Shown here in pieces: positions 5,581 through 20,952 of a stretch of DNA of 64,000 nucleotides. Under the pieces are notes generated by a model that saw only the letters and a list, made by a program, of their open reading frames with translations, was not told the origin of the DNA and ran no database searches. The stretch is from Micropterix aruncella. Taxonomy: Eukaryota; Arthropoda; Insecta; Lepidoptera; Micropterigidae. Position 1 is the stretch's first letter. Each line of letters begins with the position of its first letter. The DNA lies in contig OX155957.1 in assembly GCA_944548615.1 (NCBI GenBank), forward strand, positions 4,518,795-4,582,794, given 5' to 3'. The translations under genes and the position numbers were made by a program.

Positions 5581-8500
5581 TTGATATTTTAAGTGTGTAA
5601 ATTTTTTTAAATTATTTTCAATAATATATAAAATTAGATTCATGAAAAGTTACTTATCTGGGGTCCTGGTGGACCAGAAACATTTTACCGATAGTTAATG
5701 TCCTCTTTAAATACTTAGGGCAGCAGCACCTGTTTCCGCAATATGTTCTTAGTTATTGCTCTCTGCAGCCGAATTATTGTATGCCCTTGGATGTAATGAG
5801 TATAGGAGGATGGTTTCTGTAACAGAAATGGATGTTAGTAACTTATTTTAGAAGAAATTATATGACTGAGAATATTTCGACACTAGTCGTATTCATCTCT
5901 ATGACATTTCTGATAGAACAATTTTTTCAAAATTTAAATTTAAAAAAAACTGAACATAGAGAAATGGGTTAATAATATTTTGCAATATCGTTATAAATGC
6001 ACTATAACCGACCTTGAAAAACATTATTAATAATGATTTTTAAATGAAAAATATTAATAAGCTTTTAATGAATATGTCTGAACAAATATAATTACTGTAT
6101 TAATTTTGCCTATTCAGACCGGGACCCTTGCAAGCGCCTAAAATATTTATAAAAGCCAACTCCCAAGATTTAACGTCTCTTTCTTTAGCGTTATCGCCAA
6201 GGCACTTAATAATTTTTACTTTAAAACAATTATCAAAAGTTAAATTGTGTGCCTTAGCATGCAATGCTATTGGAAGTTGACTTTCATTGCCTACGCTGGC
6301 CCTGTGATTATTTAACCTAATGCTAAGAGGTGTAGTTGTTTCCCCAATATAAAATGCATTGCAGGTCTGGCAAAGTAATTGATATACAATATTTTTTGAA
6401 ATGCAACTACTATTAAAAGGAACTCTGTAACTGTTGGGAGTGTTAGGACTAGTAAAATAAATGCTTCGATCTAATAAAGGACATGTTTTACAACGTGATC
6501 GACCGCAAGGCTGTAGGCCCAAATTTTTGTTAGTACTAAGATAATTTCGATTATTTTTATTAAGTATTGATTTTAAATTAGGAGGTTTTCGAAATGATAA
6601 AATTGGTGGTATATCTAATAAACCTTTGGTTGATGGGTCGTTAGCTATAATAGGGAATAAATCTGCTAAAATTGGTCGCAGTTTCTCAGTGCCAGGAAAA
6701 TAAGTAGTACTTAGAAAGATTTTATTTTGATTTAAATTTGACACCAATTTAGGTTTAGGTGAAAATTTTGTTTCGGAATTTATTATATTTTTATCTAACA
6801 AAGAGGCAGGATAATTTCTTTCTATTAGTGATTTTTTAAGATTAGAAAGGTACTTATCTAGATTTTCTTTATTATTAATTAAACGGTGTCCGCGAATGGA
6901 CATTGAATATGGAATTGACTTTTTGGTATGAAACGGATGACAGCTATCGAAATGTAGGTATTGCTCTTTGTTTGTAGGTTTTATATGAATTGCAGTTTTA
7001 ATGGTGCCTTCGGATAGAGTTAGATCAACGTCTAAGAATGTAATTTGATTTTCTGATATAGTGTATGTAAAATCTAACGGTCCGAAATTATTTAAATCTG
7101 TAAGGAAGTCAGTGAGTGTGTCATGTCCATGTGGCCAAAACAATATAATATCATCAATAAACCTATACCACATTAGTGGTTGTAAATTTTGAGTAAGAAG
7201 AAATTTATTTTCTAATAACCCCATGAAAAGATTCGCATAAGAAGGAGCCATTCTTGTTCCCATTGCTGTACCTTTAATTTGGAGATAAAATTCATCCTCA
7301 AAAGAAAAAGCATTCTTAGTGAGGACGAATTCAGCCAACTTACAAAGAAAATTTGTAGAAGGAATTTGGGGGCTGGGCCTTTGATTAAGGTAATGGGAAA
7401 TCGCTTCTAAGCCTAAATCATGGGGAATATTAGTATAAAGAGAGACAGCGTCAATTGTAACAAGTAATAAGTTGTCAGTCTTAGGAATTGTGGTATTTTT
7501 TAGAATCTCGATGAAATGGTAACTATCTTTAATGTGTGACTTTAGATTTTTTACAAATGGCTGTAGAAAGTAATCGACAAAAGCTGAAATTCTTTCTGTG
7601 GGTGAGTTAAAACTAGCTACTATCGGTCTTCCTGGATTATTAGGTTTATGAATTTTTGGCAATAAGTAAAAATTTGGTGTTCTGATAGGGTTAGGAATTA
7701 AAGTGTTAATATCTTCATCTGATAATTTTTCAATGGTTTTTTGTTGTTCAATATATTTTTTTATTGTATTAGCAAAATTTTGATTCGGATCATTATATAA
7801 TTTTTTATAGGAAGTTTCGTCTCTGAGTTGCCTCAAACCTTCAGCTACATAGTCTGTTTTATTAAGGATGACTGTAGTTGAACCTTTATCAGCTGGCAAA
7901 ATGATGATATTGGTATCTTTGCTTAGATTGTTAAGAGCTGAAAGTTCATCAGATGTTAAGTTAGGTGTAGGTTTGAGGCTGTTTAAAAATGTTGGTTGTG
8001 TAACTTTGTTCATTAAAACTGTAATAAATATTTCTACAGGATGATTTTTTGGAAGAGAGGGTGGCTCTTTATTAGAATATTGTCGAAATTTTGCCAGTGC
8101 GTCATGTAATTTACTATTATTACCATTTTTGTCCCTTGAATGCCAAAACTCACGCCATCTCAAATTACGACAAAATTTTGCTATATCATTTCCAAAACTG
8201 AAATGGTCAACTTTGGGAGTTGGTGTGAAATTTAGCCCTTTAGATAAAACTGAATATTCATTATGGTTTATAATTTTTGAGGACAAGTTTTTTACGACAA
8301 GTCTATCGGTATTTATAGGAACCTGTGCAGTATTAGAATTTGTAACTGATGATATCAAATTTTCAATAATTGGGATTTCTAAAGGAACTTGTGTAGGTTC
8401 GGGATGCATATCTGCATGAGAATAATTGTTTATAAAATGACGATTAGCTGAGAATTTGTTTTGTGATGAATATAAGGGAATGTTTTCGTTATTGTTATAA

Positions 8501-9019
8501 TTTGAAACAGGATTTGAATTATATCTTGTATAATTTTGTTGTGTAGAGTTGTTGATTTTGTGAAAAATTTGTAAATTATGAAACTTATTTTCGTGTTTTA
8601 GCCTAATATTGTTTAAATCAATTACAGAACTGCTAACTATTTCACTAGCATATATATAATGCATTGGAGAATACATTTCTATCAAATCAACATAATATAT
8701 AAGAGACCTTAAATGTTTATCTACCAAAACTTTGTATTCATTGTGTAAAACAAATGTAATCTCCATTGCATAATTAAACCTTAAAGTGTGGAAATTATAT
8801 TGGATTTCTGGACTTATAGCTGAGAAAGGAAATTTAGGTATTAACCCTTTGGGACATATATGATTATTTAGACATTTTGACAGATATTCTACATGTCCTG
8901 TAAATTGTGATGCTTTACGAGAATGATAATTAACCTGATTTAACCAATAATTATATTCGTTCATAGTGATACATGTGATAGCAAAATAAGTAAGTAAAAA
9001 GTGTAAAATTGTTTATATT
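5581..9019 (-). mobile_element. PLE-A unit 1 (Penelope-like retroelement)
   Basis: First of the head-to-tail units. The boundary is where the sequence shared with unit 2 (TTGATATTTTAAGTG, 5581 and 9020) begins. To the left is (TA)n, to the right the next unit. On the minus strand the order is a 55-bp leader, a 954-codon ORF, and about 519 bp of 3' region. The 3' region carries a GGTCC/GGACC hairpin (about 5657-5678) and a second structured element (about 5718-5790). Confidence 0.95.
6100..8964 (-). CDS. PLE-A reverse transcriptase / GIY-YIG endonuclease, unit 1
   Basis: A 954-aa single-ORF polyprotein typical of endonuclease-bearing Penelope-like elements, which nick DNA with the GIY-YIG domain and copy their RNA at the nick. 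Residues 1-~340 match no domain I recognise. RT follows: fingers LPADKGSTTVIL (356-367), FYLLPKIHKP (432-441), motif A TIDAVSLYTNIPH (503-515), motif B GTAMGTRMAPSYANL (565-579) and motif C FIDD (602-605), all intact. Then a linker with C820-x4-C825-x2-C828 as in Neptune-like PLEs, and a GIY-YIG domain from about 860 with CNAFYIGETT (868-877), R883, H887 and a likely catalytic E935. The ATG is the only in-frame one before an upstream stop. This copy has Thr212 where the other units have Ala. No stop or frameshift is present, so activity is plausible. Confidence 0.93.
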   Translation of the reverse strand: MNEYNYWLNQVNYHSRKASQFTGHVEYLSKCLNNHICPKGLIPKFPFSAISPEIQYNFHTLRFNYAMEITFVLHNEYKVLVDKHLRSLIYYVDLIEMYSPMHYIYASEIVSSSVIDLNNIRLKHENKFHNLQIFHKINNSTQQNYTRYNSNPVSNYNNNENIPLYSSQNKFSANRHFINNYSHADMHPEPTQVPLEIPIIENLISSVTNSNTAQVPINTDRLVVKNLSSKIINHNEYSVLSKGLNFTPTPKVDHFSFGNDIAKFCRNLRWREFWHSRDKNGNNSKLHDALAKFRQYSNKEPPSLPKNHPVEIFITVLMNKVTQPTFLNSLKPTPNLTSDELSALNNLSKDTNIIILPADKGSTTVILNKTDYVAEGLRQLRDETSYKKLYNDPNQNFANTIKKYIEQQKTIEKLSDEDINTLIPNPIRTPNFYLLPKIHKPNNPGRPIVASFNSPTERISAFVDYFLQPFVKNLKSHIKDSYHFIEILKNTTIPKTDNLLLVTIDAVSLYTNIPHDLGLEAISHYLNQRPSPQIPSTNFLCKLAEFVLTKNAFSFEDEFYLQIKGTAMGTRMAPSYANLFMGLLENKFLLTQNLQPLMWYRFIDDIILFWPHGHDTLTDFLTDLNNFGPLDFTYTISENQITFLDVDLTLSEGTIKTAIHIKPTNKEQYLHFDSCHPFHTKKSIPYSMSIRGHRLINNKENLDKYLSNLKKSLIERNYPASLLDKNIINSETKFSPKPKLVSNLNQNKIFLSTTYFPGTEKLRPILADLFPIIANDPSTKGLLDIPPILSFRKPPNLKSILNKNNRNYLSTNKNLGLQPCGRSRCKTCPLLDRSIYFTSPNTPNSYRVPFNSSCISKNIVYQLLCQTCNAFYIGETTTPLSIRLNNHRASVGNESQLPIALHAKAHNLTFDNCFKVKIIKCLGDNAKERDVKSWELAFINILGACKGPGLNRQN

Positions 9020-20834: not shown

Positions 20835-20847
20835 TTATATATATTAT

Positions 20848-20952
20848 TATTTAAAGAGGACATTAACTATCGGTAAAATGTTTCTGGTCCACCAGGACCC
20901 CAGATAAGTAACTTTTCATGAATCTAATTTTATATATTATTGAAAATAATTT
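20848..20952 (+). repeat. Inverted PLE-A terminus fragment
   Basis: About 105 bp that are the reverse complement of PLE-A unit positions about 26-130 from the left end (compare 5607-5711), including the GGTCC/GGACC hairpin. It lacks the outermost 26 bp and passes directly into (TA)n. With unit 1 this gives the array inverted termini at its two ends. Confidence 0.95.

What the first reader, a model, noticed from the sequence alone, without database searches (positions are those of the whole stretch)
5581..20952. Head-to-tail array of four intact Penelope-like elements
Four complete 3439-3441 bp units, each with an open 954-codon RT/GIY-YIG ORF, are joined without spacer, and a fifth 5'-truncated unit follows. 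Tandem PLE copies are known, but usually as one full copy plus a partial one; a run of four complete, apparently functional ORFs with a shared exact junction is unusual. It suggests reverse transcription of a concatemeric or circular RNA, or later amplification by unequal exchange.
Basis: partly seen in the sequence, partly recalled or inferred. Interest (0 to 1): 0.88.

Follow-up and report, generated by a model that had tools for sequence, protein, structure and literature searches.

The report
Clonal retrotransposon arrays in TA microsatellites
A jumping gene of the Penelope kind has pasted several near-identical copies of itself head to tail into a TA microsatellite, and the same genome holds many such runs whose members are far more alike within a run than between runs, which suggests that the copying enzyme may read one template round and round.

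Summary
On the minus strand four complete 3439-3441 bp units, each with an open 954-codon RT/GIY-YIG frame, are joined seamlessly. Missed: along the element the truncated unit comes first, a 106-bp inverted copy of the 3' region caps the 5' end, and the 15.4-kb insert lies inside a (TA)n microsatellite. It is not a one-off: the 1.08-Gb genome gives 360 matches to the unit-unit junction, with arrays of up to 9 and, in one arm, 15 complete units. Among 60 full units from 12 arrays, units of one array differ by 2.0 substitutions on average, units of different arrays by 11.3. All 64 junctions inspected keep the full tail, although target-primed ends start at two sites. On contig C1, 23 of 24 two-copy opposite-strand clusters point outward. 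Best reading: an active (TA)n-directed Penelope-like element that extends both strands of a cut; arrays arise by repeated passes over one end-less template, perhaps a circle. No hammerhead ribozyme was found. Unequal exchange remains a real rival; three arrays mix haplotypes, and several arrays share haplotypes.

The parts
5518..5581 (.). (AT)32 microsatellite abutting the 3' end of the element (target site, 3' side)
5582..9020 (-). Unit 4 (3'-most complete unit, 3439 bp), ending at RT start site A; ORF 6100-8964
9021..12459 (-). Unit 3 (3439 bp); ORF 9539-12403
12460..15898 (-). Unit 2 (3439 bp); ORF 12978-15842
15899..19339 (-). Unit 1 (5'-most complete unit, 3441 bp, +AA in the tail A-run); ORF 16419-19283
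19340..20834 (-). Unit 0, 5'-truncated (1495 bp, unit position 1945 onward), identical to units 2 and 3 over its length; 267-aa ORF 19858-20661 with the GIY-YIG domain
20835..20847 (.). TA-rich filler between the truncated unit and the inverted arm
   Evidence: sequence
20848..20953 (+). Inverted arm: 106-bp copy of the 3' region, starting at RT start site B (26 nt short of the full 3' end), 100% identical to unit 2
20952..21110 (.). (TA)79 microsatellite abutting the inverted arm (target site, 5' side)

Best explanation
An active, autonomous Penelope-like element whose GIY-YIG/RT protein prefers (TA)n microsatellites. SHOWN by anatomy: array 3' ends lie in (TA)n; in two-ended insertions both outer ends are 3' ends of the element pointing outward; ends begin at site A (unit end) or site B (about 26 nt upstream), often one of each. 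INFERRED: the enzyme cuts both strands, each 3' end primes copying of the element RNA in the 3' region, and the two truncated cDNA arms are joined head to head. INFERRED, less surely: in a minority of insertions the longer arm passes repeatedly over one and the same seamless template, most simply a one-unit circular RNA (or a functionally end-less equivalent), giving in one event a run of near-identical complete units plus a truncated one. The window array would be such an event: about 4.4 passes on the long arm, 106 nt on the other.
For: (1) Homogeneity: 60 full units in 12 arrays, mean within-array 2.0 vs between-array 11.3 substitutions, 0 of 1000 label shuffles as low. Nine units plus truncated plus 2.07-kb inverted arm of array C4a without a substitution. 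Array C9 carries a roughly 100-bp internal duplication in both of its complete units. (2) Both arms agree in haplotype where this could be seen: window, C4a, C9, C13c, and C2a, whose inverted arm matches the main units, not the 3'-most one. In C13c both arms exceed one unit: 14 uninterrupted complete units plus one interrupted by 263 bp one way, two complete units the other way, head to head. (3) Seamless junctions: 64 of 64 in 12 arrays carry the tail and none lacks it, whereas of 17 classed TA-abutting ends in the same DNA 11 start at site B. (4) 5' ends are scattered, none at unit position 1: 11 arms of 10 arrays, KS p=0.45. (5) C13c: 13 singleton vs 2 shared substitutions over 16 units of both arms; a steady duplication (Yule) model gives so few shared in 1.3% of runs. 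(6) Two-sided priming: among exact 3'-region copies on C1, 23 of 24 two-copy opposite-strand clusters point outward; 11 of 12 outward pairs with both ends classed are A-B, P=0.0026 under independence. (7) Target: 12 of 12 readable array 3' ends in (TA)n; genome-wide on the forward strand 187 site-A and 315 site-B ends abut a (TA)n tract, reversed controls 0. (8) ORF conserved between subfamilies: C1 vs 11 other arrays 20-22 synonymous and 8-14 nonsynonymous codon differences on 594 and 2268 sites.
Against: No hammerhead or other Rfam ribozyme in the element, so no known route to a circle (genome search for RF00163 empty, but only 73 of 125486 candidates were scored and its control rang nowhere). 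Three arrays are not single-template: C13b has haplotype blocks of 3, 2 and 3 segments with 6 shared vs 7 singleton variants, the 3'-most unit of C2a has the haplotype of C2b, the 3'-most unit of C51 differs from the rest by 2 substitutions and an indel. Haplotypes are not private to arrays: four arrays have a unit at 0 substitutions from a unit of another array (C4a-C51, C2a-C2b) and three more at 1 (C13a, C3, C4b). The A-run between sites B and A varies among units: in C13c 5 of 16 minus-arm tails have one variant and 2 of 16 another, the first in non-adjacent units; also 2 of 7 in C13b, 1 of 7 in C2a, 1 of 5 in the window; a single circle does not predict this without recurrent slippage. 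A-B pairing is not strict: of five arrays with both ends classed, window, C4a and C13a are A-B, C2a and C13b are B-B. Junction number per cluster is overdispersed against one geometric (p=0.0017; 0.03 without the largest). At short distance there is no sign of purifying selection (window vs ten nearer arrays: 1-6 synonymous, 2-8 nonsynonymous). Unit counts rest on the assembly.
Confidence: 0.47

Rival explanations
1. DNA-level expansion: an ordinary insertion (inverted arm, truncated copy, one full copy) acquires further complete units by unequal crossing-over or gene conversion between its tandem copies.
For: Needs no unusual template. Explains identical inner units and the odd 3'-most unit in C2a, C51 and the window. 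The heavy tail of junction counts, the shared variants in C13b (6 shared, 7 singleton) and the recurring tail variants in C13c fit continued exchange.
Against: Variants in C13c are mostly singletons (13 vs 2). C4a shows no substitution across nine units and both outer parts. C13c has more than one unit in each inverted arm, which would need expansion on both sides. The expansion would have to be a burst soon after each insertion.
Confidence: 0.27
2. Reverse transcription of a linear multi-unit RNA read through a tandem donor array, as sketched for PAc in PMC11167929.
For: Tandem RNA is the published scenario. Gives seamless junctions. Array C9 starts 1119 nt beyond the unit boundary, so its template ran across a junction. 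Near-identical units in C4a/C51/C13a, C3/C4b and C2a/C2b could be donors and daughters. Would also explain mixed arrays such as C13b.
Against: Copying can only keep or shorten an array, so on its own it cannot maintain arrays. It does not explain variants seen in every unit of one array and in no other array compared (7-bp insertion and 12-bp deletion in the window, duplication in C9, several substitutions in C21). Needs an RNA above 30 kb for C4a and about 52 kb for C13c.
Confidence: 0.16
3. End-to-end template jumping: the RT runs off the 5' end of one monomeric RNA and continues at the 3' end of another.
For: Jumping is known for R2 RT (recalled, no call). The mixed haplotype blocks in C13b and C2a and the variable tail A-run at junctions fit several RNAs.
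Against: 64 of 64 junctions carry the full tail and none starts at site B. None of 11 arms stops at unit position 1. Units of most of the arrays compared share one haplotype.
Confidence: 0.06
4. Assembly artefact: fewer real units.
For: Units 2 and 3 of the window are identical; no reads were available. Two of the fetched arrays (C3, C21) end in runs of N.
Against: 360 junction matches over many contigs, arrays with unit-specific variants, truncated and inverted ends and distinct flanks.
Confidence: 0.03

Closest known systems
PAc, Poseidon of Anolis carolinensis (PMC11167929; parts 1-3 of 4 read)
   Same: RT plus C-terminal GIY-YIG in one ORF, tandem units with pseudo-LTRs, two adjacent internal RT start sites ('tail'), cleavage and extension of both strands, AT-rich targets.
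   Different: Here ends lie in (TA)n tracts; A and B starts tend to fall on opposite ends of one insertion (PAc saw no difference between strands); no hammerhead found; one array has 15 complete units in one arm, and units within an array are nearly alike.
Penelope families of Adineta vaga (PMC3846280; passages)
   Different: No long homogeneous arrays and no microsatellite target in the passages seen (the word microsatellite has 0 occurrences in the main text).
Non-LTR retrozymes (PMC7229834, passages; PMC7761336, passages)
   Same: Tandem copies proposed to come from reverse transcription of circular RNA, with PLE enzymes as candidate helpers.
   Different: Retrozymes are a few hundred bp and carry hammerhead ribozymes; here the unit is 3.4 kb, coding, without a detected ribozyme.
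Long tandem arrays of Cassandra retroelements (PMC7215508; search listing only)
   Same: Long tandem retroelement arrays.
   Different: A plant element of another class, without gag, pol or env domains by its abstract.

Membership tests
Penelope-like element, endonuclease-bearing | RT domain with catalytic aspartates | tested here: met
   RVT_1 28.5 bits (cut-off 29.6, so just under), FIDD aspartates invariant in nine sequences; 609 homologues at E<=0.001, best 120 listed, best 73% identity
Penelope-like element, endonuclease-bearing | C-terminal GIY-YIG endonuclease with upstream Cys motif | tested here: met
   GIY-YIG 21.1 bits on the 267-aa piece (cut-off 22.6, so just under), key residues and C-x4-C-x2-C invariant in nine sequences
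Penelope-like element, endonuclease-bearing | Tandem or partial-tandem copies giving pseudo-LTRs | tested here: met
[quoted passage not shown]
   inverted arm from ref position 3418, 26 nt short, in window, C4a, C13b and C9; from 3413 in C2a and 3428 in C13a; none seen in C2b and C51
Penelope-like element, endonuclease-bearing | RT placed with PLE/telomerase RTs in a tree; clade (Penelope/Poseidon, Neptune, ...) | not tested
   no tree built; Craig 2021 not held
Hammerhead-bearing PLE | Minimal type I hammerhead in the pLTR | tested here: not met
   very degenerate variants not excluded
Retrozyme | Small non-coding unit with hammerhead ribozyme and circular RNA | tested here: not met
   3.4-kb coding unit, no hammerhead; circular RNA not testable here
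Microsatellite-targeted retroelement | Insertions abut the same simple repeat | tested here: met
   12 of 12 readable array 3' ends; forward strand 187 site-A and 315 site-B ends abut (TA)n, against 1585 3'-region copies less 162 junctions; the rest were not classed

The most novel reading that the evidence does not exclude
A coding Penelope-like element replicates through rolling-circle reverse transcription: its RT is primed by both 3' ends of a cut (TA)n tract, starts at two fixed sites 26 nt apart, perhaps with two subunits on one RNA, and runs several to more than ten times around a circular one-unit RNA that is not made by a known ribozyme, writing whole gene arrays in one insertion.
Probability: 0.35. 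Interest if true: 0.82.

Novelty: new variant of a known kind. Interest (0 to 1): 0.6.

Why it matters
How Penelope-like elements make their tandem copies is an open question; PMC11167929 says that later steps of its scheme are yet to be validated. This genome offers about three thousand 3'-region copies, many with readable ends, near-identical arrays and two-sided structures, so models (circle, multimer, jump, unequal exchange) make different predictions that can be counted. An RT able to write over 30 kb of tandem coding copies at a defined simple-repeat target would also interest those who use target-primed RTs.

Tried and rejected
Hammerhead route to circles: no Rfam match at gathering score on the window; nine matches at E<=10 on 5500-9300, none a ribozyme; pattern CTGANGA...GAAA six times in the window, all outside the array; in one unit one exact core in the ORF without GAAA in range, and near-cores with one substitution, one in the ORF and one only in the window haplotype, whose stems were not assessed; RF00163 in the genome none, control uninformative. 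Solved structures: no match.

Host identity: not established. Nearest named PLE proteins are from Macrosteles quadrilineatus at 44-45%, nearest named LINE from Mythimna separata at 37%; an insect is likely, no more.

Nested insertion of later arrays into an older copy was considered for C2a and C13b: no displaced 5' part of an older copy was seen at the C2a 5' end, so not favoured, not excluded. A single exponential drop-off for all insertions was considered: C1 outward pairs are 72-3507 bp apart beside one cluster of 10 copies; not tested formally.

Rows dropped or unseen: the listings show only exact matches (the first 100), so searches count exact copies only; in C13c two junctions with one mismatch are missing from the list. 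One search leaves out units not covering about 76-3400 (truncated units, inverted arms, split C9 units) and uses positions 80-3400. In one search site-A and site-B ends were limited to C1, C2 and C3 below 11.8 Mb; adjacent ends up to 8 kb apart were paired, so some pairs may not be one insertion; two '--' and one '+-' pairs were also found. C3 and C21 5' ends (N) were left out of the 5'-end test; the 11 values include two arms of C13c, and the C2b value is uncertain because another fragment lies beyond it. C1 is not. Paper searches that listed no held report of long PLE arrays by circular RNA or of (TA)n targeting by a PLE: (open-licence PMC only; listings, not full texts).
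Full report
Observation. The window carries four complete 3.44-kb units on the minus strand, each with an open 954-aa frame, and a 1495-bp 5'-truncated unit. In element orientation the order is (TA)79, a 106-bp inverted copy of the 3' region, 13 bp of TA-rich filler, the truncated unit, units 1 to 4, (AT)32. Between the units there is one substitution and one AA insertion. The protein has RT and GIY-YIG domains just under Pfam's cut-offs with conserved catalytic positions; its best homologue is 73% identical over 90% of the query.

Not a one-off. The genome (1.08 Gb, 742 contigs) gives 48 scored protein matches, all full length, without stops and rounded to 100% identity; 48 of 6933 candidates were scored. 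The junction pattern with up to one mismatch occurs 360 times, its reversed control never. The 100 listed are exact matches on C2 to C26 and fall in 47 clusters: 30 with one junction, 9 with two, 3 with three, one with four (the window), two with seven, one with nine, one with sixteen in two arms (13 and 3). These are lower bounds, because junctions with a mismatch are not listed. A 3'-region pattern with up to one mismatch occurs 3210 times, control 0.

Homogeneity. I read twelve other arrays in whole or part besides the window. Across 60 full units in 12 arrays (C9, whose units align in two pieces, is not among them), substitutions average 2.0 within and 11.3 between arrays; the lowest of 1000 shuffles is 7.6. 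C4a is the extreme: nine units, a 1.66-kb truncated unit and a 2.07-kb inverted arm without a substitution. The window's units carry a 7-bp insertion and a 12-bp deletion not seen in the other arrays compared; C9 repeats a roughly 100-bp internal duplication in both complete units. The diverged C1 array looks the same: its two units share about 41 differences from the reference and differ from each other at 5 sites, both frames open. Against this, C13b is a mosaic, C2a and C51 have an odd 3'-most unit, and seven of the 12 arrays have a unit within 0 or 1 substitutions of a unit elsewhere (C4a-C51 and C2a-C2b at 0; C13a, C3, C4b at 1); the other five (window, C1, C13b, C13c, C21) are at least 3 away.

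Ends. All 12 readable array 3' ends run into (TA)n. Of ten readable 5' or far ends, seven abut (TA)n directly, two reach it after 23 and 42 bp (C2b, C51), and the far end of C13c does not; C3 and C21 end in N. On the forward strand 187 site-A ends and 315 site-B ends lie within 6 or 9 nt of an uninterrupted (TA)n tract of 20 bases or more, against 1585 copies less 162 junctions: roughly a third. Reverse-strand counts are inflated by repeat slippage and not used.

Two-sided insertion. On C1, 93 exact copies form 58 clusters: 23 outward pairs, 1 inward, 32 single, two larger. Distances of outward pairs are 72-3507 bp. On C1, C2 and part of C3, 11 of 12 outward pairs with both ends classed are one site A and one site B, P=0.0026 if independent. 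Among arrays with both ends classed, three are A-B (window, C4a, C13a) and two B-B (C2a, C13b), so the pairing is a tendency. Both arms agree in haplotype in the five arrays where this could be seen.

Mechanism. Copying a linear multimer cannot lengthen arrays, so a length-restoring step is needed (inference). Jumping should show site-B junctions and 5' ends at unit position 1: 0 of 64 junctions and 0 of 11 arms do. Steady duplication by exchange should give nested shared variants: C13c shows 13 singletons and 2 shared (Yule P=0.013), but C13b shows 7 and 6, and an early burst followed by rest would look like C13c too. One-template multi-pass synthesis fits the uniform arrays best, with a circular RNA the simplest template; its source is unknown, since no ribozyme was found. 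The tail A-run, which lies between the two start sites, varies within C13b, C13c, C2a and the window; slippage or use of several RNAs could do this and it counts against a pure single-circle account.

Known and new. Tandem PLEs with pLTRs, inverted arms, tails, two start sites and two-strand extension are published (PMC11167929, PMC3846280, PMC8969392; seen as stated). Circular-RNA templating with tandem cDNA is proposed for retrozymes (PMC7229834, passages). Long homogeneous arrays of a coding PLE, (TA)n targeting and A-B pairing I did not find in the listings; the held library is open-licence only, and Craig 2021, Cervera 2014 and Lunse 2017 were not held.

On recounting I corrected the C13c unit count (15 complete units in one arm, two in the other), stated that the listings are exact matches only (which removed a supposed enrichment of junctions beyond C26), added the B-B arrays and the extent of haplotype sharing. 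The last two lowered the best explanation from 0.50 to 0.47 and interest from 0.62 to 0.60, and raised the linear-multimer rival from 0.14 to 0.16; other odds stand.

Noticed in passing
window 35432-39733: A LINE with open ORF2 (995 aa, endonuclease plus RT) and ORF1 (358 aa, Baculo_FP_2nd domain); best ORF2 homologue 51% identical.
   Followed up: partly
window 505-1210 and 49093-49810: Two inverted copies, 95.7% identical over 721 aligned positions; the second overlaps the start of an RT ORF at 49599-51305.
   Followed up: no
L003 (C2:3100756-3101061), L007 (C3:14529210-14529516), L026 (C13:33838474-33838737): Insertions of about 260-305 bp inside PLE units, with 4-6 bp overlaps of unit coordinates at their edges; perhaps small non-autonomous elements. 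Not compared with each other.
   Followed up: no
G000, junction matches not listed: Only 100 of 360 junction matches are listed, all exact and reaching C26; the rest are one-mismatch junctions anywhere or exact ones further on (full units are known on C33, C35 and C51). Their distribution was not examined.
   Followed up: no
L014, C4:36085374-36086366: A separate, more diverged copy just downstream of array C4b, also ending at site A in (TA)n.
   Followed up: no
L032, C13:33891998: The far end of the + arm of the largest array stops at unit position 1092 without (TA)n, unlike the other readable ends; a later rearrangement or assembly break is possible.
   Followed up: partly
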